Source: Theristus sp. LFF4_11 (lineage: Eukaryota > Nematoda > Chromadorea > Monhysterida > Xyalidae). From it: 64,000 nt of DNA. The DNA lies in assembly GCA_030248135.1 (NCBI GenBank), contig JASANC010003385.1, positions 1 to 64,000 on the forward strand. The letters run 5' to 3'. Position 1 is the first letter of the stretch. Each line of letters opens with the position of its first letter. Below, in pieces: positions 17,765-56,199 of the stretch. The position numbers and the translations under genes are program-made. Under the pieces are notes generated by a model. The model was not told where the DNA came from, ran no database searches, and saw only the letters and a program-made list of their open reading frames with translations.

Positions 17765-19153
17765 TGTCACAACGCGGCCACGCAGAAATGAGCGACTTTC
17801 CTTAGTACAGTGCGGTGATCAAGTGCTCTATACAGAAAATTTGCAAAACTACGATGACCTACGCGTTGATTTTCTCAAATGCCCTAGGGTTGCGCGCGCG
17901 TTTCCTAGTTACGCTCCACCAAAGGATGGATCTGAGCGGAGTCATAATGGCCTGGATTTCCTAATTTAAATCTTATGTGGCAACACTAAGTTGCCTGGTG
18001 GGTTCCCTACATGCACATTTAGACAGTTGGTCAAACATGTGGACAGCGCGAGGGTGTCACATTTTTAAGGCGCAAATGGGAGAGAAAGAGAGTGGAGTTT
18101 TTAGTGGACTGTCGTCGTCCAACTAACCTGTTTAATTCACGGTATTTATCGTTGGACCGAAGTCCACAGTCAACTGTTGATGTTGTTGGTGTTGTTTTTT
18201 TTTCTTTTAACTTCCACAAAACTTCTTTGCCACACTTTATTTAAGACAAAATCCAATGGCTCAGTAGACTAACTAAAAGTAGAAAAATTTCAAATTATAT
18301 AGCATGCGATTTTTCATAAAAAATGAAGGTCCCGCCCCCAAAATGTTCTGATTGGTTTCAAAAAGTGGTTTTTCGGATACTGATTGGATGGCGGATTTTA
18401 GTTTTTCTAGTTTACAAAAACTAACATAAAAAGAGGTTTTGTTTTACTGAAAGTTGTTCCGAAGTTTATCAAAACAAACATTAATCATCCCCCCATGTTT
18501 GGTTTTCATTTTTCTCCGGACTTTACAGCAGCGATTTCTAACAACTGATAGGCATGCACAAGCACAACCATTCACCCGAAATTACTAAAGTGTAACGAAA
18601 AATAGCGCAAAAACAAGTAAAGTTAACTAAAGTGACCAGTAAAAATGGGTTACACCCAAATATCGTGCACATGCAAGAAAGTTTTTCTTTACTTTCAAAA
18701 AGAAAACAATTTATAAAGCCAGAAAATGTTTTCTAATCAGTTATTTTGCATCTCCGAAAAATATTCTCGAACAATTACCCTATTTATCAATTTTTTTGTG
18801 TAAACATTCCCGGACATAAAGTTAGCAATACCGTATACCAGCAAGGCCAAAAATTAGAAATTTCATGAAAGTTACCATAACCTGGTTAAATTTTCAGATA
18901 ATTACTTTTGTTTGTTTTTTTTTAAAGCTTTACTAAATTTATGAAGTGAAAAAAAACTAAATTGATTTTTCGCCTGACAAAATAATTTGTTTTAAATGGA
19001 ATATAATGTCCCCATCACCAAGTAGATTTTTGTTTGTGTGTTATCAAGTGTTGTAGTGTTGGTCACGCATTAGTTCCTTTCGATTGTGTTTAGTTGCAGT
19101 TTGTAGTTTGTAGATGCACTTGCAGGTTGAGTCACCAAAATTATTTTGTCACA
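17765..19153 (-). repeat. 3' LTR of the giant element (left copy)
   Basis: 1,389 bp, starting TGTCACAACG and ending TTTTGTCACA on the + strand. It aligns without rearrangement to 42328-43716. The only differences I see are single-base length changes, such as one extra T near 17871-17876 here and one fewer A in the run near 18950. It contains a 62-codon ORF (18031-18219) present in both LTRs, which I do not regard as a gene. Confidence 0.95.
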
Positions 19154-19165
19154 CCTCCCCCTCTC
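19154..19165 (-). other. Polypurine tract (plus-strand primer) of the giant element
   Basis: On the minus strand the bases directly before the 3' LTR read GAGAGGGGGAGG. This uninterrupted purine run abutting the TG of the LTR is the expected RNase H-resistant primer for plus-strand DNA synthesis. Confidence 0.88.
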
Positions 19166-19937
19166 AAAGAATGGATGGCGTCCCCGACATCAGCGGTGCA
19201 AAGTTGGTGGTTCCACAACGTGGAGACAATCAGCAAATCGGTCACGTAAGCGCCATGATATGAGTGAAGCCATTGTTAATGTCCCAGGTGACGGGTTTTG
19301 AAGCATTAGAAGTCACGGCAAATGAGTAGGACACGCCTCAGAAGACAGTTCTGCACGCATTCATCGGATGTACGGAGCAGTTGTGTAGGGGGTGTGCAAG
19401 TGCAGATGATCCACTAGATACGGATAGCTCTTATTGGCTTTTTGTTGTTGTCCGTCAAAAGACCGGTTTTTGAAACACACAAACCGAATTCGGTATCATC
19501 AGCAGAATCAGCAGCATGAAGGAATCATGGATTATCACGGCCCCCATCACCAAATACCCGTGATCACAGAGGTATAAATGAAGCTGTTACAAAACACCAT
19601 GCAGTACTAAGCGTAAAATCGCATGCTTTTAATAGAAGAGATCTTTGTGAAATCGCTGCTGTATGATTATATAGGCTCGCATACCACGAGGGTTCCCCAT
19701 AATTGGTAAAAAGACACATAAAAATGAGAAAAAGGAGAAAAAAGGAAAAGAAGAGAAAATAATAAAAAAAAATAAAATAAAATAAAATAAAATAGTTAAA
19801 AGAACCAATAACAGAACACAAAGGAAAATAAAACAGAGAGCTGAGTCTTAAGATTCCCAAAAGACAAATGAGTGGGGTTCTTTTTTTCTTCTTAAAAAAA
19901 AACGTAAAATATCAGAGCTCGTTCAAAGGAAGATTGA

Positions 19938-22900
19938 CTATTCTATTATTGGAAAATTTCGCTTAGCTTGTGGTCGTTCACGCAGTTGATATCGATGCAT
20001 ACCACCGCGTGGCCTCACTTGCTCAATTTCTTCAGACTCCGCTTCAGAGACTGTGTCAACACCATTGGTGTGGCTTTGACTTGTTTCATCATCAGTTTCA
20101 TGTTCATCTTCTGCTTCAATAGCAGTTTCACTTGAACTGTCACTGTTTGCCTGAGTCTCATCATCAGCTGGTATTGTCTGTTTCTCTTTATTTTGAACGA
20201 TCACCTGATCTAGCCAATCTTCATTTGACGAGTCTGAGCTTGGTATATCTTCGGGGACGGGTTCAAAATCAGGGACAAAAGGTGAGGAAAAAGGTTTCAA
20301 CCTATTGAAATGAACCGTTTGGAGTTTCATACCTTTCACTCCCTCCTTCTGAATGACATAATTTGGGGCCTTTACCTTAATTACTTCATAAGGTCCAGAA
20401 AACTTGGGTTGAAACTTCTTGCTTAATCCAGTTGGGATTTTCTCTACTTTTAAAAGAACACGATCTCCTAATTTAAAAGGCTTACCATGTTTCTTGCGAT
20501 CATAGACGGCTTTTTGTTTGTTCTTGGCTGCATCAATATGTTTATGAGCAAGCTGCCAGGCACTTTGCAGGCGAAATTTTAGTTCGGTGACCCAGTCAAC
20601 TTGATCTACATAACGTCTATCTGGAGTGTTATAAACTAAATCTAAAGGAAGTTTTGGAGATCGTCCATATAGACAATAGAAAGGTGAATATTTGCTGGAG
20701 GATTGGATGGATACCCTGATGGAAAGTAAACAGATTGGTAACAGTTGATCCCAATCGTCGCCGGCATAATTTGTATAGTTCCTCATCATACGGCAAACTA
20801 TTCCGTTTAGTGATTCACATTGACCATTACTTTGGGGATGATAAGCGGTGGTTAATTGGTGTTTTAGTCCTAAAATTTTTGTTACTTCTTTCACTAGATT
20901 TGAAACAAAGTTTCGACCGTTATCAGAAATAATTTTTTTAGGAACTCCATGTCGGCAGATAATTTCATTCACAAAAATTCTAGCAAAAGTTTGCGTAGTT
21001 TGATCCGGAATAGCAAAACATTCGGGATATTTTGTTAAATAATCTATAACACTTAATATACAGGTGTTTCCTTGTTCGGTGAGGGGTAAATTGGTGATTA
21101 AATCTACTCCTATGACATCAAACGCACCTTCAACCGGAATTGGAACTAACGGAGCTCTCGGGTTTTGTGTATTTCGTTTGAATTGTTGACATTTGGGACA
21201 ACCTTTGACATAAGCATTTACATGTTGTCTCATATTCGGCCAATAAAATCTTTCTTGAATTTTCTGAAAGGTCCTTAACTGTCCTGTGTGTCCGCCTCCA
21301 CAAATTGAATCATGATATGATTCTAGTACTCTTTTTATCAATGTCTTAGGAATGGCAGTTCTGGACGGTTGTCCCCTTGGAGAAAATACTAGAATACCGT
21401 CTTTTAATTGAAATTGAGGCAAAATCTTCTTTAGTTTTTCATCGGAGGTCCTTCTGCCATTTTTCAAAGCTTTTACTATTGCACCAAAATAGGAATCGTT
21501 GTCTTGACTTTTTACTAATTCAGAAAAAAGTTGTGAGTCATCCTCAGCATGTTGTTCTTGAATTACAAAAATTTTATTGTTGACATTAGCTAGTAAATCA
21601 GGTTCCGCCGGGTTGTCAGGACTAATCTGCATACCAAAGTTATCATCTGCGTCTGCATCCTTGTTGTCAATTGGTAGTCTAGATAATGCGTCCGCATTAG
21701 CATGCACTCGACCAGGTTTGTACTGTATGTCCATGTATCCATCAAATTGTCGAAGACTTTCTGTCCACCGAAACATAGGACCGGTCAGGTTGGTGAGTTG
21801 CATGATATATTTTAGTGGCCGGTGGTCCGTAATGACTGTAAATTTGTGACCCAGCAAATATGGACGGAAATGTGTTACGCAGAAATATAGACCATATGCT
21901 TCCCTTTGTGTTGTACTCCATCGCTGTTGGCTGGGCGATAATTGTTTAGATACATAAGAAAGAACCTTTTGTTTGCCATTTTCGTCTTCTTGTTGCAAAA
22001 TTCCACCTATCCCAACTTGACTAGCATCTATATACAAATAAAATGGTTTTGAGAAATCCGGGTAGCTTAAAGTCACATTCTCAATTAGACGGTGTTTCAA
22101 AATTTCAAAAGCTTTTTCTTGTTCTGGACCCCAAAGAAAAGGTTCGTTCTTTCTTAATAAACGAGTTAGTGGTTCTGCGACCGTACCAAAATCCTTAATG
22201 AACTCCCTATAAAACTGTATTAGACCAATGAACCTACGTACCTCCTTTTGAGTTGTGGGTGCTGGAAAATTTTTCACAGAATCAAATTTTGCCGGATCGG
22301 GTCTAATTCCATCTTTGCCTATAATGTGCCCTAAAAATTTTAGTTCCTGCTGGCAAAAAGTTGACTTTTTGGGATGTAATTTTAGATTAAACTTTCGCAG
22401 GCGTTGAAAAACTTTTTCAATATGCATCAGGTGTGATTCAAAGTTGGGTGAATAAATTAGTACATCATCAATATACACCAGGGCAGAACCAGCGCAATCG
22501 TTCAATACTGTATTCATCAACCTTTGAAAACTACTAGGAGCATTTCGAATACCGAACGGCATACAAACCCAGTCGTAACTTCCAAACTCACAACCAAATG
22601 CTAACTTATGTACATCCTCCTCTTTAACTTTCACTTGGTAGTACCCAGACTTTAAATCCAAAGCAGTAAAGTACTTTGCAGAACCTAACGAATGTATGAT
22701 TGTATCCAACCGTGGTAGTGGGTATAAGTCGGGGACTGTGACAGCATTTAACCCTCTAAAATCCGTGCAAATTCTTAAGGATCCGTCAGGTTTTGTGACA
22801 ACCACTAATGGTGCTCGATATGGACTGACCGATGGTCGAATGAGGCCCATTTTTAACAATTCTTCTAACTGATCCTTAACAACGTGCTTATGCACTTCCG

Positions 22901-25900
22901 GCAGTCTGTACATGGGCCTGACTACAGGGGCTGAATCTGCAGTTGGTATTGAATGTTCATAGATGTCACAATGCCCTAGTATTCCATCTTGTAACACAAA
23001 CACGTCGGCATATTGTACCAATAATGCCTTTAGTTGTTCTAATTCTGGAGGACTACAAGCAGTATTTGAGAGGTCCACCAGCCCTAAAATTTCGTGATTG
23101 CAATTATTTGTTGCTGTGAAAATTCCGCATGTGGGTTGCTGTCTACTATCCTGACTATTATCATCTTCAGTGGTGACTTTACAGAACTGCTCGCCAAATC
23201 CTAGGCAAAGTCCAGCTTTTAATGAAATGGGTTCTAGTGTTGGATTAGCAATTCGAATTGGTAAAACAGTTTGAGAGGAAGTGAATAAAGTTTTGGCACA
23301 TAATACCCCGTGTTGTTTCGGCAGAGAATCACGCTGTTCCAAAATCAAATCTGGTCTTTGTCTACTTCCGCCGACTCGACACATCACCAACATTTCACAG
23401 CGCGGGGGGACAGTGACATCATTCAACACTTGAACTTCCCAAGCTTGTTTTCCGTCGGGTTTCTCATCTGAGTTAAATGGAATTTGTTTTCCTGCAATAC
23501 TCATATATTGTTTCTCAAAATCGAGGGTCATTCTTCTGAAGATCTTGAGTACGTTATTCCCCAGCAGAACATCAAAAGGGGCTTCATCTAAAACCAGGAA
23601 TTCATGAGTGTGAGTTTCATTCCCAATTGAAATTTGTGCCACTGTACTCCCCACAAATGCTAAAGAATTGTTGGTAATGCCAGATGCCGTTTGTTGAGTT
23701 GGCTTAACTGGTTCATGAGGAATGGTTTCCAGATACTTTTTGTCTACCACTGAAGTGAATGAACCCGTATCAATTAAGGCTAATGCCGAAAATCCGTTAA
23801 AATAAACTAGAGTGGTAACCATCACATTCTGTCCACCGGTGCTTTCCGATTCAGTGCCTTCATGGATCATTGCAATCAATTGTGTAGTAGTTTTCAATTT
23901 TGGAATGGTTGGCGGAAATTTTTGAGGGGCTACGGCTGTCATACTTGTTGATGACTGGCTACTAGTAGCTATTTCTTCTGGCCGCGGTCGCGGCGGAATT
24001 TCTGGCCGTTCATTTCCACGCGGAAAAGTCTGACTTCCCCTATTAAGTGAGACAAATTCCAAGTCATCCGTGGTCAATGCTCGGCCCCTTCTAAACCGTA
24101 CCTTGGTGTGATCTGGCACACTAGTGGATGAACGTCTGAACCACCTTCTCCATCTGAAGTTCATGTCGGTCATCTCTTTCAGCCATTTCCAAAATTTTGC
24201 CAGAAGATCCGGAACCGAAAATAAGAAAGCTCTTCTATGGTTTCCAGGGCAGCAATGAGCCACTATTATATGCAAATAAACGTAAATAGCGGCGATAAAC
24301 AAAAATAGCTGTTTAAAATCTAATACCAAGCCATGCATAAACCCTAAAGTACCTTTTGCAACTACTTGACTAATAATTTGGTTAGCTGCGATGGAAGGGT
24401 TAGACATATCGCGTGCCCCAAGTGCTTTAAGTATTTCATTTTGCTTGAACAAAGAACCTGACACATCATTGAGGGAAATGTGGTTATTTAACACGGACAA
24501 ATTATAAATGACGATTTCTTTCCAAATAATTGGATTAGCATCCCAAAGCAATTCAGTTAGATTATAATGCAAAATATCAAGTGCCATTGGTTCTTCTAAT
24601 AGGTTCAGGATGCCAGTTTTAGCGTCATAATTGTAATAATTGTCGTGTAAATAAACTGGCAGCTCTTGAACTAAGGTACAGTCCACAGGTAACGTTTGAG
24701 TGTGGATAATGTTAGTTTTACTATCTAAATATGCTCGAAAATGCGAACCATTCAAATTTACTTGAATGGGTATCTGAGTTGTGCAAGTATTGTTCATTGG
24801 CAATATCACATACTGTTCAGTGGATAGAGTTTTACAAGGGAAAACGTCAACAATAGAGCCACCACTAGTGGCAAAGATGTCCGACCGATTCAAAACAGCC
24901 CTAAGTGCAAGAGTTGGTTCCGCAAGAATTTGAGCCTTCAATATTTCGATCATAGTTTGCATACTCATGCAGGCTTGAAGCATGGCTGTTTGAAAAGAAT
25001 GGTGAATGTTCATGTGTAGGTCAAAATATAAAGCATTCAATTGGGCCGCTAGTTGGTCGGACATCACCACTCCACCCTGTTCTTTCAATTCGTCCGGATC
25101 AAATCCTAGTCCTCCGGCAGGTGCCTCATCTAAGTTATGCCATACATTCCCGTTTACTTTTCGAGCCCCACGGGTGTTGTGGGTGATGGCTAATTTGGAT
25201 GCCGAATGAAGGGACGGGAGATTGACATTAGACTCCTGGAACCGGTCTGAGGGTTGAGATGTTTCAGTTGAACGGATTAAAGTTGAAGTTTGTGGAATGG
25301 GTTTCTGGGTGTGTTTTTCAGTGACTGTGGATGTTATAGTTTGCGTTGTTGTCACCTTAGTTGAGGGTATGGTTGAAGTTGTGGTTGTACTAGTAATTAT
25401 AGGGGTCGTGGTGGTAGTAGAGGAAGTCATTGGGTAGTTAGTGGTGTGGCCAGTTGTTGAAATGGTGGCTACTGGCAATTCCTGTGTAAGTATGTTTGGC
25501 TTTTCTTTTAAAGAAAAAGGTGTTAATGTGTCAAATTTTCGCGTGCTGGTTGTTTGTCCTGCCACTACGAAGTCTTGGTAGAGTAATATGTTTCCGTCTT
25601 GTTTTAATTGTCGCGTCTGTCGCACTCGGTCGGGACTTATATAAGGTCTATACGCAATGCCTTGAGGTGATATCCAAAGAGGTTTTCCATCACAAGCTAA
25701 TACTTTATTTTTGTCATCTAGAGTTAGGCCAAGCATGAGGTCATCGCTAAGCCAGTTTTTTGAGTAAATTGTCCCGTTCATTACTTTGTAGTCAATGTAT
25801 GTACAATTGGTCTTTGGTTCTACGTTCCATAACATATAACTGTTATCTCTCAGACTACATGAAGCTGCGTAATAATTACAATGACGCACACTACCCGCAC

Positions 25901-26456
25901 TACTTTCAAAGCTTCCTCCATGCCGTTTGTATACTTTGGCGGTATAAAGAAAGAAATTATCTGCCGTATTTTCAATCCATTTTCCACAGCAGTCCCATGG
26001 CCAGCCACTAGGCCATTTCACGTCCACTTTATTTACTGTTTGATACACCTCACCTTTTTGTATCAAATCTCCCAGGGTGGTGGTCTTCCAGTGTACGGCG
26101 CTCTGACACTCGTGACCTTCTACAGGCAGCACAGTGTCAAATTCTTCTTTCTGGTGATCTACACCAGCAAAGCCAGTGTGAGTCTTTATTGTTTTGCGAA
26201 TCTTTTTGCAAACCCAAGCGACAGATTGATATTGAATGTAGTTTCTTCGAAACAAGTGCAAGGGATAAGGCACAGGTGTTTCAAAATGTGCACCACTACC
26301 TCGGGGAACATGTATGTTACACTGAACACCGGTGGGTATAGCAAATGAAGCCCTTGCATTTTTGGACTGACATAGCATAGGAGCGGAGTTACGTAACCAA
26401 TAAGCACTTACGGGCACCGCATGAACCAGAGCGACAATTCCCAGGAAAAGCAGCAT
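19938..26456 (-). CDS. Envelope-like glycoprotein fused to Pol (PR-RT-RNase H-IN), 2,172 aa
   Basis: One uninterrupted ORF. Residues 1-20 are a hydrophobic signal peptide. Residues to about 705 form a Cys-containing, N-glycosylation-rich ectodomain with a Thr/Ser-rich stretch near 330-400. A hydrophobic membrane segment lies near 712-735. Then come an aspartic protease (LIDTGS, about 890), reverse transcriptase (YIDDVL, about 1326), RNase H (YIDAS, about 1475), and integrase with an HHCC zinc-binding region (about 1712-1760) and D,D,E residues (about 1780, 1845, 1880), ending in an acidic tail. The usual order places env after pol; here it is first and in the same frame. Predicted topology puts the glycoprotein outside or in the lumen and Pol on the cytosolic side. 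A splice acceptor (TTTCAG, exon from 26464) lies 8 bases before the ATG, so a spliced mRNA is likely. The glycoprotein family was not recognised. Confidence 0.93.
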   Translation of the reverse strand: MLLFLGIVALVHAVPVSAYWLRNSAPMLCQSKNARASFAIPTGVQCNIHVPRGSGAHFETPVPYPLHLFRRNYIQYQSVAWVCKKIRKTIKTHTGFAGVDHQKEEFDTVLPVEGHECQSAVHWKTTTLGDLIQKGEVYQTVNKVDVKWPSGWPWDCCGKWIENTADNFFLYTAKVYKRHGGSFESSAGSVRHCNYYAASCSLRDNSYMLWNVEPKTNCTYIDYKVMNGTIYSKNWLSDDLMLGLTLDDKNKVLACDGKPLWISPQGIAYRPYISPDRVRQTRQLKQDGNILLYQDFVVAGQTTSTRKFDTLTPFSLKEKPNILTQELPVATISTTGHTTNYPMTSSTTTTTPIITSTTTTSTIPSTKVTTTQTITSTVTEKHTQKPIPQTSTLIRSTETSQPSDRFQESNVNLPSLHSASKLAITHNTRGARKVNGNVWHNLDEAPAGGLGFDPDELKEQGGVVMSDQLAAQLNALYFDLHMNIHHSFQTAMLQACMSMQTMIEILKAQILAEPTLALRAVLNRSDIFATSGGSIVDVFPCKTLSTEQYVILPMNNTCTTQIPIQVNLNGSHFRAYLDSKTNIIHTQTLPVDCTLVQELPVYLHDNYYNYDAKTGILNLLEEPMALDILHYNLTELLWDANPIIWKEIVIYNLSVLNNHISLNDVSGSLFKQNEILKALGARDMSNPSIAANQIISQVVAKGTLGFMHGLVLDFKQLFLFIAAIYVYLHIIVAHCCPGNHRRAFLFSVPDLLAKFWKWLKEMTDMNFRWRRWFRRSSTSVPDHTKVRFRRGRALTTDDLEFVSLNRGSQTFPRGNERPEIPPRPRPEEIATSSQSSTSMTAVAPQKFPPTIPKLKTTTQLIAMIHEGTESESTGGQNVMVTTLVYFNGFSALALIDTGSFTSVVDKKYLETIPHEPVKPTQQTASGITNNSLAFVGSTVAQISIGNETHTHEFLVLDEAPFDVLLGNNVLKIFRRMTLDFEKQYMSIAGKQIPFNSDEKPDGKQAWEVQVLNDVTVPPRCEMLVMCRVGGSRQRPDLILEQRDSLPKQHGVLCAKTLFTSSQTVLPIRIANPTLEPISLKAGLCLGFGEQFCKVTTEDDNSQDSRQQPTCGIFTATNNCNHEILGLVDLSNTACSPPELEQLKALLVQYADVFVLQDGILGHCDIYEHSIPTADSAPVVRPMYRLPEVHKHVVKDQLEELLKMGLIRPSVSPYRAPLVVVTKPDGSLRICTDFRGLNAVTVPDLYPLPRLDTIIHSLGSAKYFTALDLKSGYYQVKVKEEDVHKLAFGCEFGSYDWVCMPFGIRNAPSSFQRLMNTVLNDCAGSALVYIDDVLIYSPNFESHLMHIEKVFQRLRKFNLKLHPKKSTFCQQELKFLGHIIGKDGIRPDPAKFDSVKNFPAPTTQKEVRRFIGLIQFYREFIKDFGTVAEPLTRLLRKNEPFLWGPEQEKAFEILKHRLIENVTLSYPDFSKPFYLYIDASQVGIGGILQQEDENGKQKVLSYVSKQLSPSQQRWSTTQREAYGLYFCVTHFRPYLLGHKFTVITDHRPLKYIMQLTNLTGPMFRWTESLRQFDGYMDIQYKPGRVHANADALSRLPIDNKDADADDNFGMQISPDNPAEPDLLANVNNKIFVIQEQHAEDDSQLFSELVKSQDNDSYFGAIVKALKNGRRTSDEKLKKILPQFQLKDGILVFSPRGQPSRTAIPKTLIKRVLESYHDSICGGGHTGQLRTFQKIQERFYWPNMRQHVNAYVKGCPKCQQFKRNTQNPRAPLVPIPVEGAFDVIGVDLITNLPLTEQGNTCILSVIDYLTKYPECFAIPDQTTQTFARIFVNEIICRHGVPKKIISDNGRNFVSNLVKEVTKILGLKHQLTTAYHPQSNGQCESLNGIVCRMMRNYTNYAGDDWDQLLPICLLSIRVSIQSSSKYSPFYCLYGRSPKLPLDLVYNTPDRRYVDQVDWVTELKFRLQSAWQLAHKHIDAAKNKQKAVYDRKKHGKPFKLGDRVLLKVEKIPTGLSKKFQPKFSGPYEVIKVKAPNYVIQKEGVKGMKLQTVHFNRLKPFSSPFVPDFEPVPEDIPSSDSSNEDWLDQVIVQNKEKQTIPADDETQANSDSSSETAIEAEDEHETDDETSQSHTNGVDTVSEAESEEIEQVRPRGGMHRYQLRERPQAKRNFPIIE

Positions 26457-26562
26457 TCCGAATCCTGAAACGAATTAGGTTTTTACCATTAACTAAAATT
26501 TGTTTTATTGGTTAAACCTTCTTCTTCACACAAAAAAATGGGAAAACAGATAACAAATCACG

Positions 26563-28317: not shown

Positions 28318-28836
28318 TGACGACGCGAAATGGTGGCATTCTAAAAATGAATTACTGCATCTGTTTTAATAATATTTGCTTGCACTATACGTATTGCGTT
28401 TTTTTTTCATGGAAAAGTAGCATCAAGGAACAAAATAAACTAAACAGTTTCCCTGCTTTCCGTAGTAATCAACAATAAAAGATCTATTGCTTATCAAAAT
28501 ACACATGCTCGGATTTGAACCACCACCAGTCTCATGCAAGCCACATGCTCTAACCGTCACACTATCGCACTCAAGCATTATGCAAACCACATTGTACGGT
28601 TTAGTAATACTGACGTGTAACAATCCATTGCTGGTAACACAGGGTAAACCACAGGACAAGAAGGATCATACGTGTAGTGTTCATAACACACAGATTCTGC
28701 GTTGGACCATATCCATTGGTCCACTTGTACCACGTACTATATGTCTATTGGTGTTTCGCAACTTATAAAAACTTATTTTATACACTTTGGTGTCATTTTT
28801 TTGTTCTTTCGTTGGCCTAGTTACTTGCTGTGGAGA
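28318..28836. other. Divergent spacer between F-box gene and antisense gene, with tRNA-like pol III boxes
   Basis: The F-box gene leaves this interval on the minus strand and the membrane-protein gene on the plus strand. On the minus strand about 28495-28570 reads like a tRNA-derived sequence: an A-box-like TAGTGTGACGGTTAGAGC followed by a near-consensus B box GGTTCAAATCC. The anticodon and T arms do not fold well, so a functional tRNA is unlikely; a SINE fragment or pol III promoter is possible. Confidence 0.4.
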
Positions 28837-31013: not shown

Positions 31014-31546
31014 TCCTAAAGCTTCGTTTTGTTCGTGATTTTCGTTGTTTTCTACGGTTCTGTTTGATGTGTGCTCGTTTTACCTTGTGTGTTTCCCTTT
31101 TCTGTGTCTTTTTCTATGTGCCTCGTCTAAACAATTTTGGTACCACACGACGACGCCGAATTACTTAGATGAATTGTGAAACATTATGAAACCACACAAA
31201 TCTCAGAAAGAAACCGGGAAAGAACTTCACTTCTATTAAGCACAATAACGAGTTAATCTAGAACGTGAGCTGTACTGAGTCAACAAAATTTGGACCAAAA
31301 AAAACCCTGTAGCTAAGGAGATGGAAAAATTGGAATCGCCAAAATGAGAGTGATCAATCAGTATTATAAAATTCAGAAAGCAGATAGTCCAAGGATAGGG
31401 CACCAGGGTATGAGTTCGCTAAGTACAACCGCAAACAGTAAACTTTCACCATAAAAAAATATTCCGAAGTGAGACTAAAACGACAGAACGGAAAGAAAAC
31501 GGTCCTAAATGAATAAAGTACAGGTATCAATATTGTGCATTCATTC

Positions 31547-31771
31547 AAACGTGTCCGGACTAACGTGACGTCATTTTATTTAAAAAAAACGCCCGTTTGT
31601 CAAAGTACAGACACTAAAATTTCAGTTTGGTGTGACTGATTCGACATTCACCATTTATTTACGGGAAGAAATCGGCTAAACGGATAGTCTGGTTTGCTGT
31701 GAACGACAAGCGCATGTTTTGTGGCACATGACGCCATTTTAGTGGGACACGTTTAAAAAAATAGGCCATAC
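31547..31771. repeat. Dispersed 225-bp repeat D, copy 1, inside the giant element
   Basis: Closely matches 47080-47300 throughout, including AACGCCCGTTTGTCAAAGTA and GAACGNCAAGCGCATGTTT. It starts AAACGTGTCC and has GGACACGTTT near the other end, a possible short inverted terminus. The same family occurs in host DNA next to nibrin, so the retroelement and this genome share a mobile repeat. No ORF is seen. Confidence 0.8.
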
Positions 31772-34447: not shown

Positions 34448-34810
34448 CTGTGGAAGATTTGGAAACGTTAAAACTAAATTATTTAACAACACCATCCGTC
34501 TTTACTAAAAATTCTAGTTGATAAAAAGAAGGGATAAAAATTAGAGCATGGCAAAAATAACAGTCCGCACAAACTCTTAACCAAAACAATCGAACAATTC
34601 CATACACCACAACACTACAAAATCAAAGGTTACTGCCAACTATTCCAAGTTATAACCGAGCGACTTGTATTCAACCACTCAAAACTCACCGCCCAGTAAA
34701 CTTCACCAGCCATTCCGAACTGTAATTTCATATTCTCCTTTTTTTCGAAAAGAATTTTTTTTTTTTCACATCGAAGAAATGGTCATTTATTTTTTTGTTT
34801 CTTTTTCTTT

Positions 34811-37800
34811 TTACAGTTGCTTCTGTAGCTGTGTGAAATCTACCAAGTGGTTCTTGTGGAAAGTGACAAATTCCCTCCACAAGCCTGATGTTTCAACGAG
34901 ACAATCAAAGTCGCCAATGAACACAAGGGCCTCTTTGGCCCGGCTTGTAGCAACATTGAGTCGTGCATCATTAGCTAAAAATCCAACACTTTTTCGAGCA
35001 ACACTTCCGGCCCGCGTAGTGAGCACTAGGATTACAGGGGCTTGTTTGCCCTGGAAAGCATCACTGGTGCTTACTCGCACATTAGATAACCACTTATGCT
35101 TGTGAGCGAGGGCGCTTTTCAGTAACGGGATCTGTCCCTTATACAAACAGAGTACCACAATGTCTTCGAACATAAGATCTGCCTTGGTGATGAGCATGGT
35201 CAAGATCTCAGCGGCTGCCTGAGCTTCCACAAGATTGCCCAGCGATCCTCGTTCGTCCCTCATAGACTCGCTCGACAATTTGATCAACGCGACCTGTTCG
35301 TTCGGTATTGGCCACGGGAACTGCACCGACTTTGCTGAATTCCGTGCGTATTGCAGACGATTGTTATACCATTTTTCACTGTTAAATTTGGTATGACAAC
35401 TAGGATGGCGGTACACAATGGCGAGTTGTACCATGTGAGCGTATCGCCGTTTCTGCGTGATTCTGTCCAAACTGCCTGCGCCTGCTCGCGCCATGCAGGC
35501 GGCCTGGAACACGTCTGTAGCTCTGCCAGCGACGAAGGGGCCCATTTGGGCGTGATCACCCACAAAAGTTATTGTGGTACTGTTGGCGTCTACGACCTGA
35601 TCTACGACCATCGCTAAGTCCTTCTCGGAGACTTTGGACGCTTCGTCGATGATGACTGTGTTGAAACGTTCGTGCCGTAGCTGATGACGACGTAGATTGT
35701 CAATTGTTGATAACGTGACATCTGCGGATGAAATCAACAAGTCTGCTAGTCGTTTCGTTGCTTCTGCTAGTAGTTGTCTATACGTCGTTATTAGCGCAAT
35801 TTGTTCACGGCTGATGTTGTCGAATGGTACATTCGAAACCTGCAGTAACCGTTCGACCTCGCTTGACTCAATTAGTTTCGTCAAATCCTCATTGGTGATG
35901 CCGAGACGCTGTTGTATCCGTTGATAGCGCTGCTCACCCTGCGGTCTCCGGCTGTCCTCGACGAGACGACTGACCCAAGACGTTACGGAATGAGGGTCTT
36001 CGGTTGTCCTGGCGTTTAAGGCGCGTTTCGCTTCGACCCGAACGACGATGACGCCTTCTTGGTACAATGCATACTCGTTCAAGTAGTCGCTAACACAATC
36101 TATAGAGACATTGGTCGTTCCAGTGACCAATGTCTTGCGCTGCAATATTTCAGTGATTACAATTTTTAAACTGTAAGGTTGTATTTCTAATTTCCTTTTC
36201 TTTCCAGCCTGTATGTATACAAAATAGACTAAGATGGTTCTTTGACTGAAATTCTTTGCTTTTCTGTATTATTGAAATTAGAGAGTTGAAGATTTCTTGT
36301 TTTACAACACTTTCACGTTCTGGTCAATTTTTATCGAAAATTAGCAGTTTTTGATTGAAACAAAAGACGTAAGGGCCAACCTGGGATGGCGCTCTCATTC
36401 GACAGTCCACAGAGCGGCGCGCTAGGATGACTACTGCCTTTGACAGCGTCGAAGTCTTCCCGACCCCAAAGGATCCCCAAACTGTTCGCACAGCTGTCTC
36501 GATGTTTCCTTGGTGGACTATGACCTCAATCATTTCCTTTTGTTCCTCATTGAGGTCATCATAATTTAGTCCCTCCAGATAGTATTCGGGTACTTTTTGC
36601 ATCTGTACAATCGGGTAGGGATCTTGTAAGCCATATAACGTACGCACAAGCTGGCCCAACGGCGTCTGCTTGCGGATCTTTTTACCTACTCGTGCGAATC
36701 CTCGGCGCAATTCGTCTTTTGCGTAGAGGTAGCTTAATTCTGCTTTGGTTAGCAGATACGACACAGTCTTATCCGCAAATCTTTGGTGATATAAACTGCC
36801 GGTTTGATCAGGCGTGAATCTGAGGGTGATTCGTATCCGCTGCTCGTCAATCCGAATCACCTCCCTGATGGGCACCACCAGGCGCGTCTCTGAGGATGGT
36901 GCATCAGCTACATCGCCGTTGACCTCCACCTTGTCAAGTGTGGCCACATCTGCTGGGGAGGGAGCCTCTCCCTCACACACGACCGCACAGCGGAGTTCAA
37001 CTCGTCCGGCATGCCAGCGCCAATCAGCTTCGCTCGCGTTCAATTCTAACGGCCCCCACTTGACTTCCTCGTTGTCGGGCAGCTGTTGTTGCACGACTTG
37101 TTCTTCCTTCATAAATTTTCGTCCCTGACTTATAAAATATAAGCGCCGCATGGCCGAGTGAAAACCCTCCATGTTGCCGTTATCAATCGTGGCGTCCCTC
37201 TGCTGATGTAGTATCTGCACCTCATAATAGTCCGCCCATGCCGGTAATATTTTGTAGGCCTGGGCCACACTCTCCTCTATTGCAGATATCTCTTCTTCAT
37301 ACACCGCCGGATTCTCGCCAGCTGCCTCGGCTTCGTCCCGATCAGCAATAGCTCTTTCTTTGGCTGCTTCGGCATCACGAACATCGGCAAACAGTTGGTC
37401 GATCAACCATTTCCCGTAGGCGGCGTCCCCATGTTCGAGGTGCGTCCGCTGTTCTTGCCAATCAAACTTCAGCCAATTTTGAACATCAGGCCGATCAGAT
37501 CTGGCTACACGCGGCATCCAGAGTTCGACGCGATCCTCCGGATCTCGCTCAAACATCAAATCTCTCCTCGGCACTCCATACTCTACATAACCGCGTGTTT
37601 CGCTGGGACCGCGGTTCCGGGTCATTTTGGACATCACCCAATGGGCTACCTAAAATGAAACAACCATCAGGGTCTCCATCTTCACTGAACCTCCCCATCC
37701 GTATATTGTTTTATCTTGTTTCTTTCTCAGTGTTTCTTTGATCAACTCCGGCTGTTTCTTTCCTTTCCTTTTCCCTTCAAAACAGGATATGGAGTCTCAG

Positions 37801-38780
37801 CAAAGGAAGAGACCACTGATAAGCATTGTACGTATAAGTATCAACAACTTCTTCTATGTCTGTTGTTTTCTTGTAGATAACTCTCTTTTCTTATGCAATT
37901 AAGAAAAAATGACTAGATTTGCCAACCTCCAAACCACGATGGTTGGTGACAGCTCGCAAATTAACGTCCGTATGAACTCCGGCATACTCCGTGTGTTCGT
38001 GAAGAAGATGCGCGAATAGGTCACTGTTCACTGGCTTGATGAGGGTACGACCCCGAATCAACACTTCTCCGTCTCGTCCGCCAGATGGTTCTTTCGACGA
38101 TGTCACGAAACCCAGAACCCTTTTGTTCGTTTCCGCCGGGTAGATCATCACTCTTCCCTGAGGGTTAGTGCTTTGACCCACCACAGCGAGGCTCGGTTGG
38201 AACTGATTGTTATCGACAGATCGGATTTTAACAATCAGGTGAGCGCGCAACGGACCAGTCGTCAGCCCGATGTGTCGTTCCGGATTGTTCCGAATGTCGA
38301 AGGGTATCGTGTTATCGAACCAGATCTTTACGCGGTCGAGTCGGACCTGGAATCGGTCCGTACTGGTGGTCAATCCGGGGTACTGACGTATCATTTCGCT
38401 GATTCGATAGTCCAACCATGGACATTCCTCGTCGGTTGGCCGAACGATAATCGCGTCATTGTAGCTGGCGACAACAACCGAATGGGACAATTCCAAGGGG
38501 ACGTCGCCCAACCGATAGATGCGCGGCCAGCCTTGGTCGTTCGTGACCATTTCAGCCAAAACTACGGATTCGTTCGCAAAATACCCGGGTGTAATGTCCT
38601 GTGGGATTTTGAAGATGCAGTCATGACACCATTGCCATCTCCGCGAGTCCCACTTCATGGGAAAGAGCCCGTAGGCATCGCGTTGCTTCATTCGACGAAA
38701 TTCACGAGTGCCTTTCCTGGTTCGCAAGTAAACCAACGACTCCGTCCAGATCTCGTCGTTGGTTCTGGCTGCCACTTCCA
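34811..38780 (-). CDS. Spliced UPF1-like superfamily 1 helicase gene of the giant element (at least 1,149 aa)
   Basis: Three exons, 38780-37927, 37649-36381 and 36139-34811, join in phase 0 with GTTGGC donors and TTTTAG/TTGCAG acceptors. Helicase motifs appear in order: Walker A GSFGVGKTST (about 677, just before the second intron), TGTTN motif Ia, DEAS motif II (about 870), GDHAQ motif III (about 900), and RLNVATSRAKEALVFIGD motif VI (about 1097). This is the UPF1-like SF1 pattern of 5'-3' RNA/DNA helicases. The first 600 residues include a charged coiled segment and are unrecognised. The first exon starts at a CTCCTCCAG acceptor owing one base, so an upstream exon exists, perhaps in or near gag. 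A helicase is not part of standard LTR elements; help with copying a very long genome, or evasion of RNA decay, are inferences. Confidence 0.88.
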
Positions 38781-38923
38781 CTGGAGGAGATGAATGAATT
38801 CAGAGTTGACAAACACAGGGAAATAGATTTGCTTGAGAATGAGTGTTTTGGTCTCTCTTTTGGTGTTTATGAATACATTCCAGATCCCCTCTTTTTCTCT
38901 TTCCTTTCTTAAAAAAAATCCTT

Positions 38924-40474
38924 TCAAGGTTGAAGGCTCAACCGTTCAGATAGTTTACTTATTTGTAACTGTTGTTGTTGAATTTCTCTCCGTTGGTCAC
39001 TACATAAGCCATACATCAGACTTTCATGTTCATGGCACTTTTTATTCACACATCCACCTACTCCAAGCACACTTGCATCCACACCACTTTTGGAAAGGTT
39101 GGGCGTAAACTTACTGGCTTCATTGCCACTACTCGCTACCGATGAGCCTGCCACAGTGGCGTTCGATTCGACAGACGCCGAGGCCGTACCCGCTGTTGGC
39201 TGGGTTACTGACGCTGAGGGCGCATTTGTTGATATCGCGCCGATCACGTTGGCGTCCGTGACAAGGTCCGAGGGTTGAACCTCTCCTGGGCGAACGACGC
39301 AGACCTGTCCGCCATTTCTCTGGCCACGGCCTCGACCTCTGCTTGCTGATGACGTTCCCGACATCCCGTTACTAAAAGTGAAATTGGGAGTTTGCTCAAC
39401 ATTCCCATTCACATCCGTCCACCTAGACGAATAGTTCGGCCATGTTGGCGCCGCATAACCACCACTCCTGTTCATTTCATTCCCGTAAGGTGTGTATCGT
39501 GGACGATATGACGTTTGTCTTCCCCAATTTTGTTGGTTTCCCCACCTATTATTATTGTTGTTCCATTGATTTCCACGAAATTGATTTGAAGCATTCCGAT
39601 TAGGCATTGCGTTGCGGTTTGGATTGTGATTATTTCTTGCTTGGCTTGGTCTATAAGCTGCCGGAAAAGCATAAAACGGATTGCCTAATGGGCTACTATT
39701 TGAAAGGTTCATAGTTTTGCGGTTTTCATTAGTGTTTTCATTCAAATCTGGCAGCCCTTCAACAGGCTCATTGGGACGTGGCAAGCCGCGGGTTCTAAAA
39801 GTACTGAATATGCCTTGAGAACTTGGAAAATAGCCTTTAGCTGCATACAAGTTATGTTCAATCCTCAGAGCTTGGTTGACAGCCGCCTCATAAGTTGTTG
39901 GTCTTTGACTAAACCCCATGTGGTAGCGGATACTAGGTCGTAGGCCATCACAGAAATGATCCAATAGATAAACTGTTTTTAAGTCTTGCGTACTTGCGCT
40001 GTCGGATGGCTCACCCAGCGTACTTTGATAGAAAAGAGTACGAAGGGCTCGTGCGTACTCCAACACATTTTCATCCTTGCCTTGCTTTCTTGCCTTGAAC
40101 TCAGAAGCCGCTAGCTGTCTTTGTTCAGGGCTTTCAAGTTTATCCTTCAATGTGGCCACAAGCAAATCGTAATTCGCTTGTGTCTCAGCATCTAATTGTT
40201 CATAAACTTCCCTGGCGTTTTCTACCAGAAGGGCTGGTAGTACCGCTAGGCAATCAGCTTCATTGTACTGCATTGCTTTTGCAAACAAAACAAAGTTATT
40301 GTACCAACTGGTAAACGATTGTCCGATGGTGGCCGCAAATGAGGGGCATTTCAACGGCAAACCATGACGGGACGTGTTACCTGAACTCCCTTGACGGTCA
40401 CTAAGTTCTTTAACTTTATTCTCGGCGAGTCTCAGCCTCTCGAGTACTTGTGCAATAGTGGGTTCCTCAGCCAT
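38924..40474 (-). CDS. gag: Gag-like protein (516 aa)
   Basis: First long ORF after the 5' leader, with an ATG in good context (AACCATGG). Residues 1-30 are helical. About 45-230 resemble a Ty3/gypsy-type capsid (FTSWYNNFVLFAKAM, then charged helices, YLLDHFCDGLRPSIRYHM). About 270-380 are Asn/Arg/Gln-rich as in nucleic-acid-binding Gag regions. The end is a short coiled coil. No classical CX2CX4HX4C knuckle is present; there is only a C/H cluster (CVNKKCHEHES, about 475). It ends about 140 bp before the first helicase exon in a different frame. Confidence 0.88.
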   Translation of the reverse strand: MAEEPTIAQVLERLRLAENKVKELSDRQGSSGNTSRHGLPLKCPSFAATIGQSFTSWYNNFVLFAKAMQYNEADCLAVLPALLVENAREVYEQLDAETQANYDLLVATLKDKLESPEQRQLAASEFKARKQGKDENVLEYARALRTLFYQSTLGEPSDSASTQDLKTVYLLDHFCDGLRPSIRYHMGFSQRPTTYEAAVNQALRIEHNLYAAKGYFPSSQGIFSTFRTRGLPRPNEPVEGLPDLNENTNENRKTMNLSNSSPLGNPFYAFPAAYRPSQARNNHNPNRNAMPNRNASNQFRGNQWNNNNNRWGNQQNWGRQTSYRPRYTPYGNEMNRSGGYAAPTWPNYSSRWTDVNGNVEQTPNFTFSNGMSGTSSASRGRGRGQRNGGQVCVVRPGEVQPSDLVTDANVIGAISTNAPSASVTQPTAGTASASVESNATVAGSSVASSGNEASKFTPNLSKSGVDASVLGVGGCVNKKCHEHESLMYGLCSDQRREIQQQQLQISKLSERLSLQP

Positions 40475-42307
40475 GGTTCTTTACGTTCTTACTTTTCCAG
40501 AAAGAAAACAAAACAGTTTCGAGAAGCTCTTAAAAAGAGATTTCCAACCAAAGCACTAGATCTTCCGAAATCGTCAACAAACTAAAATTCAAATAATAAC
40601 TTTAGTTTGGACACCCTGGGGGGATAGACTTGGATTACCAAAAAAAAAATCTTAAAACTTCTTTTTGTTACCGTCGATAAACTGACGTCTCCACAATCCT
40701 CTGAAAAGGAATTCCCAGAGGTTGGTCTCGAAGTTTGAGTCTGAGTCTGAGTCTGAGTCTCTGCGTTCACAACTTATTGACATGGTCTATACTACTTTTG
40801 AGAGTTTTCACCCTCGTCCTTTTTGTCCCTTTTTTTTGAGATTCTTGGTTGCTTGGCCATGGCAATAGCGATTGAAATTCACCGCTAACTCACAAGAAAA
40901 AGAAGCAAAACAAGCAAAACAAGCAAAAGAATAATAAAAGAAAATATTAACGACAGCCCTCTCTTTTATCTCTCTCTCTCTCTCTTCCTAGGCGTGCTTA
41001 AAGAACAAAGGAGTAGGGCATTAGGCAATAAGCCGAAGACGACATACTTTAAATGATTCTTTTTGAAATGTACAACTGGATTTCACACAACGCACTTTTA
41101 TTCACACACAAACTCCCTTCACTGTTTTGGATAACAAACTATTCTTCATCATACTTTTTCTCAGTTTAGTAACGAAACCAACCTGATTAGACACATAAAC
41201 AAGACTACACACACACTGCAGCTGATACCGAAAGATCTACATATAACAAAATCACAAGCGCTTCACTGTATCAAACCATCTTATTCACTGTTAACTTTAA
41301 CACAATAAAATAATGCAGCGTACTTGGGCGCTTCAGGAATATCATCCACAGACCAGGTTTTAAAATTCCGCAAAAGTTTCAATCCTACAAGCCCCTGCGA
41401 AAGCACAAAACAGATTAGAGAAAAACGCAAGTCCCATCGCGCGCTTGACAAAGAAGTTTCTTTCACCCGTTTTACGTCAAACTGGCATGAATGGATCTTT
41501 CAACACACACGCGCACAGATGCATAAAGAAAATAAACTGCTCCAGCCGAAACTTCAGCAACGAACCTCCACAGCACTTATTTGAGCACCGAACTATGTGG
41601 AATGTTTCAAAATAAGTGAGTTTCCGATTGAGTGCCTACATCTCAGTGGTCAGCAGAGAAAAACATGCTTTAAATTTTGAGCAAGCTCCTCAAAGAAAAT
41701 AACCACGACTCTCAAATCTAACGACACTGGGCCCCCTAAGAAAAACTTAAACCAAATGACTTTCTTTCCTCAGGCTCCATCAAGCTAGAACAAATCAAAA
41801 TTCAACTCGAGCTCGTATCACCAACCTGTCTTTCACTGGCTCTGCAAATTCACTGTCTCGGCCGGCTATAATCAATATCGATTTCAATTCAGGAAATTAT
41901 CTTAATGCATTTCACCTTGAATTCGCAAATCTCCAAACATAAATCACAGTAACGACTCAATATGAGCAAACAAACAGTACTGTTTCACTTTCCTCTCAAG
42001 GCCAATTTAATGTGCGAACTTCTAAACTTCTTCTCAAAGTCATCGGAGCCAGCAAATCAAAATATTTCTTTTCTTTTTCTTTATTCATCAATTCATAATA
42101 TTCAGCGCTTATTTTCAAATTCAACAATGCGCAATTAGCAGAGCAATCCTCAAGTTTCAATCCTATTAAACACTGCAGTTCCTCTCAAACATAAACAAAC
42201 AAAAACAAAATGAAATGTCGTTGGACAAGCTGCAGACTTGCCAACCTGATACTAATCTGGTAAAACCAGTAGCATCATTAGGCTTAACGCAACACACAAA
42301 ACCAAGA
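40475..42307 (-). other. Long 5' leader of the giant element
   Basis: About 1.8 kb between the primer-binding site and gag with only short ORFs. It holds a CTCT microsatellite (about 40970-40985) and a TGAGTC/TCTGAG tandem (about 40735-40760). I see no gene. Packaging and splice-donor signals would be expected here but cannot be pinned down. Confidence 0.6.
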
Positions 42308-42327
42308 GGACCAATGTGGGGGCGCCA
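42308..42327 (-). other. Primer-binding site of the giant element
   Basis: Directly after the 5' LTR, the minus strand reads TGGCGCCCCCACATTGGTCC with no spacer. TGG at the LTR junction pairs with the CCA end of a tRNA, and TGGCGCC is a common PBS start. The matching tRNA cannot be named from this window. Confidence 0.82.
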
Positions 42328-43716
42328 TGTCACAACGCGGCCACGCAGAAATGAGCGACTTTCCTTAGTACAGTGCGGTGATCAAGTGCTCTATACAGAA
42401 AATTTGCAAAACTACGATGACCTACGCGTTGATTTCTCAAATGCCCTAGGGTTGCGCGCGCGTTTCCTAGTTACGCTCCACCAAAGGATGGATCTGAGCG
42501 GAGTCATAATGGCCTGGATTTCCTAATTTAAATCTTATGTGGCAACACTAAGTTGCCTGGTGGGTTCCCTACATGCACATTTAGACAGTTGGTCAAACAT
42601 GTGGACAGCGCGAGGGTGTCACATTTTTAAGGCGCAAATGGGAGAGAAAGAGAGTGGAGTTTTTAGTGGACTGTCGTCGTCCAACTAACCTGTTTAATTC
42701 ACGGTATTTATCGTTGGACCGAAGTCCACAGTCAACTGTTGATGTTGTTGGTGTTGTTTTTTTTTCTTTTAACTTCCACAAAACTTCTTTGCCACACTTT
42801 ATTTAAGACAAAATCCAATGGCTCAGTAGACTAACTAAAAGTAGAAAAATTTCAAATTATATAGCATGCGATTTTTCATAAAAAATGAAGGTCCCGCCCC
42901 CAAAATGTTCTGATTGGTTTCAAAAAGTGGTTTTTCGGATACTGATTGGATGGCGGATTTTAGTTTTTCTAGTTTACAAAAACTAACATAAAAAGAGGTT
43001 TTGTTTTACTGAAAGTTGTTCCGAAGTTTATCAAAACAAACATTAATCATCCCCCCATGTTTGGTTTTCATTTTTCTCCGGACTTTACAGCAGCGATTTC
43101 TAACAACTGATAGGCATGCACAAGCACAACCATTCACCCGAAATTACTAAAGTGTAACGAAAAATAGCGCAAAAACAAGTAAAGTTAACTAAAGTGACCA
43201 GTAAAAATGGGTTACACCCAAATATCGTGCACATGCAAGAAAGTTTTTCTTTACTTTCAAAAAGAAAACAATTTATAAAGCCAGAAAATGTTTTCTAATC
43301 AGTTATTTTGCATCTCCGAAAAATATTCTCGAACAATTACCCTATTTATCAATTTTTTTGTGTAAACATTCCCGGACATAAAGTTAGCAATACCGTATAC
43401 CAGCAAGGCCAAAAATTAGAAATTTCATGAAAGTTACCATAACCTGGTTAAATTTTCAGATAATTACTTTTGTTTGTTTTTTTTTAAAGCTTTACTAAAT
43501 TTATGAAGTGAAAAAAAAACTAAATTGATTTTTCGCCTGACAAAATAATTTGTTTTAAATGGAATATAATGTCCCCATCACCAAGTAGATTTTTGTTTGT
43601 GTGTTATCAAGTGTTGTAGTGTTGGTCACGCATTAGTTCCTTTCGATTGTGTTTAGTTGCAGTTTGTAGTTTGTAGATGCACTTGCAGGTTGAGTCACCA
43701 AAATTATTTTGTCACA
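42328..43716 (-). repeat. 5' LTR of the giant element (right copy)
   Basis: 1,389 bp, near-identical to 17765-19153, followed by the CAAG target duplication at 43717-43720 and then by satellite sequence. In the element's orientation it begins TGTGACAAAATAATTTTGG and ends GCGTTGTGACA, so the same heptamer TGTGACA forms both ends. It should carry the promoter for the genomic RNA; I cannot assign a TATA box with confidence. Confidence 0.95.
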
Positions 43717-56095: not shown

Positions 56096-56199
56096 CACTC
56101 ATCGAGCAGCAAACACAGCAGAGCAGCACTGCGTGCACTTCAACAACACAGCAGTCGCCTGATTGCACTGCGCCTCCAGCCAAGAGCGCCCGCAATTGT

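What the first reader, a model, noticed from the sequence alone, without database searches (positions are those of the whole stretch)
17765..43716. A structurally complete 26-kb LTR retroelement with a virus-like cargo set
Near-identical 1,389-bp LTRs, TSD CAAG, PBS and PPT prove a single recent insertion. Between them lie gag, a UPF1-like helicase, a NADAR-SGNH protein, an F-box protein, an antisense membrane protein and an env-pol ORF. Giant LTR elements are known (plant Ogre, planarian Burro), but I know of none with this gene set. It may be a new lineage of endogenous virus-like element.
Basis: partly seen in the sequence, partly recalled or inferred. Interest (0 to 1): 0.96.

Follow-up and report, generated by a model that had tools for sequence, protein, structure and literature searches.

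The report
Giant retroelement with spliced cargo genes
A young 26-kb virus-like LTR retroelement in an unnamed eukaryote's genome carries, between gag and a fused env-pol gene, extra genes including a UPF1-like RNA helicase and a NADAR-domain protein, most of which it likely makes by splicing them to one shared start exon in or near gag; relics elsewhere in the genome keep pieces of the helicase and of two other cargo frames, so this is probably a lasting virus-like design and not a one-off accident.

Summary
A 25,952-bp element (17765-43716, minus strand) has LTRs with 0 substitutions over 1,389 bp, a CAAG duplication whose empty site is visible in the satellite it struck, a PBS and a PPT. 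Gag comes first, then a UPF1-like helicase, an unknown ORF, a NADAR protein with a weak SGNH-like tail, an antisense membrane-protein exon, a weakly F-box-like protein, and one 2,172-aa ORF with env fused ahead of PR-RT-RH-IN. New here: five of seven tested downstream frames open at a single splice acceptor in the same phase (control: 23 such sites near 1,214 stop codons), and gag and its leader hold matching donors. NADAR and F-box homology starts before their first ATG. So one upstream exon, probably in gag, likely supplies the start codon. Relics elsewhere carry cargo: helicase inside a sister-LTR element, more helicase, ORF4, ORF7. A cargo-free gag element also exists. Env before pol is not unique (Burro; two ORFs found here). 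The RT is an isolated long branch. Verdict: a new variant of giant env-bearing Ty3-type elements. Splicing and function are predicted, not shown.

The parts
17761..17764 (.). target-site duplication CAAG, left
   Evidence: unbroken site seen in other 149-bp array copies
43717..43720 (.). target-site duplication CAAG, right
17765..19153 (-). 3' LTR (TG...CA), 1,389 bp
   Evidence: 0 substitutions against the 5' LTR
42328..43716 (-). 5' LTR
19154..19165 (-). polypurine tract GAGAGGGGGAGG next to the 3' LTR
   Evidence: similar LTR end plus tract in C2025 and C1329
42316..42327 (-). primer binding site TGGCGCCCCCAC
   Evidence: its first 10 bases recur next to LTR starts in C2694, C1329, C3240, C426, C3417
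38924..40474 (-). gag, 516 aa, Retrotrans_gag
40374..40388 (-). predicted splice donor CAG|GTAACA, first intron base 40380, phase 1 after gag codon 31; rival phase-1 donors with an open ATG at 41915 (ATG 41940, leader) and 39114 (late gag)
   Evidence: consensus score only, untested
37927..38780 (-). helicase gene, predicted exon with phase-1 acceptor at 38780; no Pfam domain
36381..37649 (-). helicase exon with Walker A GSFGVGKT
34811..36139 (-). helicase exon with motifs TNVSID, DEAS, GDHAQ, DAFQG, RLNVATSR; UPF1-like
   Evidence: junction 36381/36139 is uninterrupted in the C2025 relative
33345..34447 (-). ORF4, no known domain, phase-1 acceptor at 34447; decayed relative in C2329
31964..33045 (-). 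NADAR protein with weak SGNH-like tail, phase-1 acceptor at 33045
30582..31013 (+). antisense open frame with one strong transmembrane segment
   Evidence: no Pfam match above cut-off
26563..28340 (-). F-box-like protein (weak), phase-1 acceptor at 28340
19938..26464 (-). env-pol single ORF (2,172 aa from ATG 26456): signal-like start, fusion-glycoprotein region 481-613, TM near 706-724, PR 884-971, RT 1221-1379, RNase H 1467-1571, IN 1702-1874; phase-1 acceptor at 26464

Best explanation
This is a recently inserted giant Ty3-type LTR retroelement that likely works like a complex retrovirus: one upstream exon, most likely the first 31 codons of gag, would supply the start codon and is predicted to be spliced in the same reading phase to each of several downstream genes, while the unspliced RNA would serve as genome and gag message. 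Shown: the insertion, the LTR, PBS and PPT structure, the open frames, env fused ahead of pol in one ORF, the shared acceptor phase, the intronless counterpart of one helicase junction, and relics of cargo genes at other loci. Inferred: the splicing itself and which donor is used; that Env would carry Pol into particles as its cytoplasmic tail and be cut by the element's protease; that the UPF1-like helicase would protect or remodel the intron-rich, stop-rich genomic RNA; that NADAR (ADP-ribose chemistry) and the F-box-like protein (ubiquitin ligase adaptor) would counter host defence.
For: Structure. Frames and domains. Of 7 downstream frames tested, 5 (helicase exon 1, ORF4, NADAR, F-box, env-pol) have exactly one acceptor-like site within 32 nt of the frame's start, all phase 1; one (ORF6) has a phase-0 and a phase-1 site, one (ORF5) none. 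Control: 23 phase-1 sites near 1,214 post-stop positions of the same strand from the 5' LTR to the PPT; 177 of 1,214 had any site. Of 7 donors scoring 7 or more between the 5' LTR and the end of gag, 3 follow an open ATG in phase 1: gag codon 31, leader 41915, late gag 39114. NADAR's profile match grows from positions 29-162 to 1-162 (79.4 to 86.7 bits) when read from before its first ATG, and the F-box-like stretch lies wholly before its first ATG, residue 86: both need an upstream start. The helicase intron at 36380-36140 is missing in C2025, where the same residues run on in one frame. Cargo elsewhere: helicase in a C2025 element with sister LTRs and the same PPT edge, C1646/C523, ORF4 in C2329, ORF7 beside gag in C2402. 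Helicase copies are 51% identical over 507 codons, dN 0.44, with no finite dS. Precedent for the strategy: Cer1 makes CERV from spliced mRNA and needs it to export unspliced RNA (PMC10309623, abstract, section 6 and passages).
Against: No transcript data. The 32-nt window and pyrimidine threshold of the acceptor count were set after seeing the sites. The donor is not fixed: 42689 (LTR), 40492 and 41915 (leader) score higher than 40380. At the place of 40380 the GT is absent in all 5 gag relatives aligned (C1329, C426, C381, C3417, C3240); 3 of the 5 (C381, C3417, C3240) have a strong early-gag donor at another place, in phase 0, and C1329 and C426 have only weak ones. Env would start with about 33 extra residues before its signal-like segment unless its own ATG is used. 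No second copy with the whole set was found. C2402's ORF7 piece holds a stop and lies before gag, not after it. C2694, a 99% LTR sister, diverges 243 nt into the leader. The helicase block has higher GC3 (0.52-0.58) than gag/env/pol (0.31-0.41), which hints at separate arrival. The roles of helicase, NADAR and F-box are guesses from family names.
Confidence: 0.64

Rival explanations
1. An ordinary env-bearing Ty3-type element caught host genes once or a few times; the cargo is passenger DNA with leftover host introns and no role in the element's cycle.
For: NADAR and F-box matched only the window in the assembly; a young cargo-free relative exists (C1329: gag, env and pol remnants); helicase-block GC3 differs from gag/pol; sense introns inside the helicase.
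Against: Long open frames for the cargo genes, five opening at a single phase-1 acceptor; helicase constrained between copies and found in a sister-LTR element; ORF4 and ORF7 relics elsewhere.
Confidence: 0.2
2. It belongs to the Burro lineage of giant planarian elements.
For: Similar size, env in frame ahead of pol, env with mononegavirus-type fusion homology, accessory domains tied to ubiquitin in both (PMC6431247 section 7).
Against: Gag is a separate ORF with the cargo between gag and env-pol, whereas Burro has one giant polyprotein; none of Burro's named extra domains (BIR, MATH, BCL2, ankyrin, dUTPase) was matched at E 0.01 in the ten frames scanned. No Burro sequence was at hand for an RT tree.
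Confidence: 0.2
3. Assembly chimera or nested insertions: the interior is not one transposed unit.
For: Contig-level assembly with split haplotypes (C1358/C2923 look like alleles); a roughly 240-bp host repeat sits at 31531-31771; C2694's interior differs after 243 nt.
Against: TSD with visible empty site, matching LTRs, PBS and PPT, no N, one shared acceptor phase across the block, the same LTR/PPT edge and helicase together at C2025.
Confidence: 0.06

Closest known systems
Burro giant LTR retrotransposons (planarians; PMC6431247 section 7 read)
   Same: total over 30 kb with LTRs, gypsy-like, env in frame upstream of pol, mononegavirus-type fusion homology, extra regulatory domains
   Different: one polyprotein of about 4,900 aa in Burro; here gag separate, cargo as separate spliced-looking genes between gag and env-pol; other domains
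P0007 and P0021, unnamed ORFs from sequence databases
   Same: env with homology to this env in the same place before PR, E 3.8e-15 and 3.2e-10 in a set of 122 proteins
   Different: gag-like start in the same ORF (judged by eye; no Pfam gag listed), no cargo seen in the ORF; RT not reliably its sister
Cer1 of C. elegans (PMC10309623, abstract, section 6 and passages read)
   Same: genomic RNA keeps splice signals; accessory protein from spliced mRNA that shares peptides with gag
   Different: no helicase, NADAR or env-pol fusion in what was read; no stop between gag and pol
Bdelloid rotifer LTR elements with GDSL/SGNH ORF3 (PMC5408684, passages read) and Ectocarpus Gypsy elements with NADAR (PMC12477816, passages read)
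   Same: single cargo domains of the same names in LTR elements; rotifer ORF3s said to be expressed from spliced messages
   Different: in the passages read, one or two extra domains in an ORF3 or at the N-terminus of Pol; no block between gag and env-pol
Avian leukosis viruses (recalled, no call)
   Same: env message borrows the gag start codon through a donor inside gag
   Different: one env gene after pol, not five frames

Membership tests
Ty3/gypsy-type LTR elements (Metaviridae) | LTRs, PBS, PPT, short TSD | tested here: met
Ty3/gypsy-type LTR elements (Metaviridae) | pol order PR-RT-RNase H-IN | tested here: met
Ty3/gypsy-type LTR elements (Metaviridae) | RT inside the Ty3 tree | tested here: inconclusive
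   no labelled reference set was used; database matches share the PR-RT-RH-IN domain set, the Ty3 label is recalled; long branch
Env-bearing errantivirus/gypsy type | env as separate gene after pol | tested here: not met
   env is fused ahead of PR in one ORF
Burro | env in frame upstream of pol | tested here: met
Burro | single gag-env-pol polyprotein | tested here: not met
   gag 38924-40474 separate from env-pol 19938-26456
Burro | RT clade with Burro | not tested
   no Burro sequence at hand
gag-env-pol ORF clade of P0007/P0021 | homologous env before PR | tested here: met
gag-env-pol ORF clade of P0007/P0021 | RT monophyly | tested here: inconclusive
   AU test does not reject (p 0.753, 4 of 107 rows); the 39-row careful tree has 0% of 200 bootstraps with one group; P0065, one of the four rows, shows no env in its ORF
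UPF1-type SF1 helicase | Walker A, DEAS, GDHxQ, DxFQG, RxNxAxSR motifs | tested here: met
   (motif set recalled)
NADAR | full-length domain above cut-off | tested here: met
   86.7 bits against 35.1, positions 1-162/163
SGNH hydrolase | GDS, GxND, DxxH blocks | tested here: not met
   GDS and HLS present, GxND is GTRD; E 0.06; block definitions recalled
F-box protein | F-box above Pfam cut-off | tested here: not met
   17.3 bits against 24.3

The most novel reading that the evidence does not exclude
A new lineage of complex endogenous retrovirus-like elements: a single gag leader exon starts every other sense protein by same-phase splicing, Pol rides into the particle as the cytoplasmic tail of Env, and the element brings its own UPF1-type helicase to protect its intron-rich genomic RNA from decay, plus NADAR and F-box-like factors against host defence.
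Probability: 0.3. Interest if true: 0.88.

Novelty: new variant of a known kind. Interest (0 to 1): 0.78.

Why it matters
Of the giant LTR elements in the review read (PMC6431247), Ogre owes much of its size to long LTRs and Burro to one swollen polyprotein. This one looks like a small viral genome with separate cargo genes placed between gag and env-pol under one predicted splicing scheme. If RNA confirms it, complex-retrovirus gene expression has arisen in a Ty3-type element, with a helicase tied by name to RNA surveillance. The Env-Pol fusion gives a testable packaging route other than Gag-Pol.

Tried and rejected
Nested insertion or chimera: rejected as main reading. Host identity: not found. 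The SL1 family search gave nothing, but no control genome rang either; Rfam on the window and eight loci gave 0 matches at the gathering threshold; no tRNA in the window, so the PBS tRNA is unnamed. Viral contigs: 2 scans, no relatives. F-box protein: no homologue at E 0.001 among 7,993 scored candidates. Structure models of NADAR-SGNH and ORF4 without alignment were useless (mean pLDDT 37.0 and 37.6), so no fold search was run. RT tree: the first 119-row tree put the window RT in an 11-row set with long-branched rows; the next two runs disagree. I dropped 12 of 119 rows (long, odd or near-copies) for and used 39 of 119. Three of the 121 database proteins (P0001, P0009, P0103) did not enter the RT set. 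Literature: eight searches listed no element with this gene set; the listings are capped and only open-licence papers are held. Pol and env copies in the own genome could not be counted: those searches did not complete.
Full report
WHAT IS THERE. The element runs on the minus strand from 43716 (5' end) to 17765. Its LTRs (17765-19153, 42328-43716) are identical over 1,389 aligned bases apart from two 1-nt homopolymer indels. It lies in a 149-bp tandem array (15237-17764) that continues at 43717. The break point AAAAACAAG|element|CAAGAAAAGG can be read unbroken in other array copies, so CAAG is a true 4-bp duplication. PBS (TGGCGCCCCCAC) and PPT (GAGAGGGGGAGG) abut the LTRs. Of the 10 further LTR loci inspected (L004-L013), L005, L006, L007 and L008 show matching 4-bp flanks (GAAC, ATCA, ATTA, ATTA; the last two look like alleles), the pair L009/L013 reads as one LTR with GCAG on both sides, L004 is a 5' LTR with PBS, and L010-L012 are partial. 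One of the solo LTRs is in this window (56465-57909, minus-strand match to the query, 81%).

GENES. Order 5' to 3': gag; helicase in three open frames; ORF4; NADAR protein; a 3.6-kb stretch without a long sense frame but with an antisense frame bearing one strong transmembrane segment (30582-31013); F-box-like protein; env-pol. Env-pol is a single ORF: signal-like start, fusion-glycoprotein region (PF24664, E 8e-6, 24.5 bits against a cut-off of 27), a hydrophobic segment near 706-724, then PR, RT, RNase H, IN. PR IDTGS, RT YIDDV and an integrase D-(35)-E (1845) are present. No CCHC knuckle was found in gag by pattern. The helicase's best solved relatives are UPF1 (Regulator of nonsense transcripts 1, E 4e-20) and NAM7.

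SPLICING SIGNATURE. In one search I listed acceptor-like sites at the start of each open frame. Five frames (helicase exon 1 38780, ORF4 34447, NADAR 33045, F-box 28340, env-pol 26464) have exactly one such site within 32 nt, each in phase 1. ORF6 has a phase-0 site and a phase-1 site, ORF5 none (its junction lies further in). As a yardstick, 1,214 post-stop positions on the same strand from the 5' LTR to the PPT hold 23 phase-1 sites, and 177 have any site; window and threshold were set after the sites were seen. Of 7 donors scoring 7 or more between the 5' LTR and the end of gag, 3 follow an open ATG in phase 1: CAG|GTAACA at 40380 after gag codon 31, 41915 after an 8-codon leader frame, and 39114 late in gag; the two best scorers, 42689 in the LTR and 40492, follow no open ATG. 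I favour 40380, which uses the gag start codon. Two frames need such a start. The NADAR profile gains its first 28 positions and 7.3 bits when read from before the first ATG. The F-box-like region ends before the first in-frame Met, residue 86. The first in-frame Met of ORF7, ORF4 and NADAR is at residues 30, 44 and 19 after the acceptor, but at 3 in env-pol, so env may use its own ATG. Against this, the GT of 40380 is missing at that place in all five gag relatives aligned. C381, C3417 and C3240 have a strong early-gag donor elsewhere, in phase 0; C1329 and C426 have only weak ones.

INTRONS IN THE HELICASE. ORF7, ORF6 and ORF5 join in phase 0 over predicted introns 37926-37650 and 36380-36140. 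The second is borne out by C2025, where residues matching ...RMRAPSQ and RKTLV... run on in one frame (...RMRTPHQLKTLV...). C2025 in turn breaks its frame upstream of the Walker A motif, where the window has no break, so introns (or breaks) differ between copies.

OTHER COPIES. C2025 65.8-69.4 kb carries 728-bp direct repeats (92%) that match the C1329 LTR at 72-76%, the same LTR end and PPT, a PBS-like GGGGGCGC, and helicase residues 48-65% identical to the window's: a decayed sister element with helicase cargo. Over 507 codons aa identity is 51%, dN 0.44, and the method gave no finite dS, as at saturation. C1646 and C523 (94.8% alike over 1.8 kb, so probably alleles) hold a decayed C-terminal helicase. 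ORF4 has one decayed relative (C2329, 43-50%). C2402 has an ORF7-like piece (32% over 63 residues, E 1e-7, one stop) 45 nt before a gag piece, so not in the window's order. C1329 is a small relative with 99.83% identical LTR parts (588 bp seen), gag 61% identical, remnants of env and of the end of pol, and no cargo match at E 1e-3. Gag search: 39 matches, of which 12 rows, the window included, have E below 1e-15. NADAR and F-box: 1 match each, the window itself. C2694 has a 99% LTR with PBS and 243 leader bases, then 2 kb unlike the window up to the contig start. Searches with env and pol in the own genome did not complete, so copy number of the core genes is unknown.

RELATIVES ELSEWHERE. Env search: 1 hit among 7,979 scored candidates, P0001 (E 9.5e-4), an env-protease ORF. 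Pol search: 1,160 hits, 120 listed; among the listed ones P0007 and P0021 carry a gag-like start, an env homologous to this one, and pol in one ORF. RT trees: 119 rows, window in an 11-row set with P0083, P0076 and eight others, several long-branched. 107 rows with a mixture model: holding window, P0007, P0021 and P0065 together gave a higher likelihood than the free search, AU p 0.753. 39 rows, careful: window pairs with P0076 of Caenorhabditis japonica, a long branch, support 95/83, and no bootstrap tree unites the four. P0065's ORF begins in the protease region, so it should not have been counted as env-bearing. I take the RT position as unresolved.

HOW IT PROBABLY WORKS (inferred). Pol II transcription from the 5' LTR gives one RNA. 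Unspliced it is the genome and gag message. Spliced from gag (or the leader) it gives env-pol and the cargo messages. Env-Pol would be a type I membrane protein with pol in the cytosol, released by its own protease; this would bring Pol into particles without a Gag-Pol fusion. An RNA full of introns and early stops is a natural target of nuclear retention and nonsense-mediated decay. Cer1 solves the export problem with its spliced CERV protein (PMC10309623). A resident UPF1-like helicase is a candidate for the same need here, but no result here tests this. NADAR and F-box-like proteins would act on ADP-ribose marks and ubiquitination.

COMPARISON. Burro (PMC6431247, section 7 read) shares great size, env in frame before pol and accessory domains, but as one polyprotein. 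[quoted passage not shown] GDSL/SGNH ORFs occur in rotifer LTR elements, where ORF3s are said to be expressed from spliced messages (PMC5408684, passages). No paper listed in eight searches described this set, as far as titles, abstracts and the passages read show. Hence: new variant of a known kind, not a categorically new one, and not yet a proven lineage.

Noticed in passing
15237-17764 and 43717 onward: 149-bp tandem array (16.9 copies) that the element interrupts; the same array occurs in C523 and C1646, each a few kb from a decayed helicase relic.
   Followed up: partly
56465-57909: Solo LTR of the same family in opposite orientation to the element's LTRs, 81% identical, flanked by ATCA on both sides.
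   Followed up: yes
31531-31771: About 240-bp interspersed repeat inside the element, also at 47064-47302 and in C523 and C2025 (87-90%): a short host repeat carried by or inserted into the element.
   Followed up: partly
53059-54080: Relic of another retroelement integrase on the plus strand outside the element.
   Followed up: no
2137-2769 and 4950-5582: 633-bp inverted repeat, 97% complementary, with a related copy at 55904-56096: a foldback or MITE-like element.
   Followed up: no
L027 (C2694) 1-2005: A second young copy's leader turns after 243 nt into 2 kb of 51.5% GC sequence unlike the window, cut by the contig end: possibly a copy with a different interior.
   Followed up: partly
28400-30500, plus strand: Further antisense open frames (such as 28687-29094 and 29543-29803) that may be upstream exons of the antisense membrane protein; searched apart, no Pfam match.
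   Followed up: partly
L039, L040, L042, L045: Several gag copies 80-87% identical to this gag stop being alike near residue 246 (263 in L040), as if the capsid part were conserved with a different tail, or kept as a separate gene.
   Followed up: no
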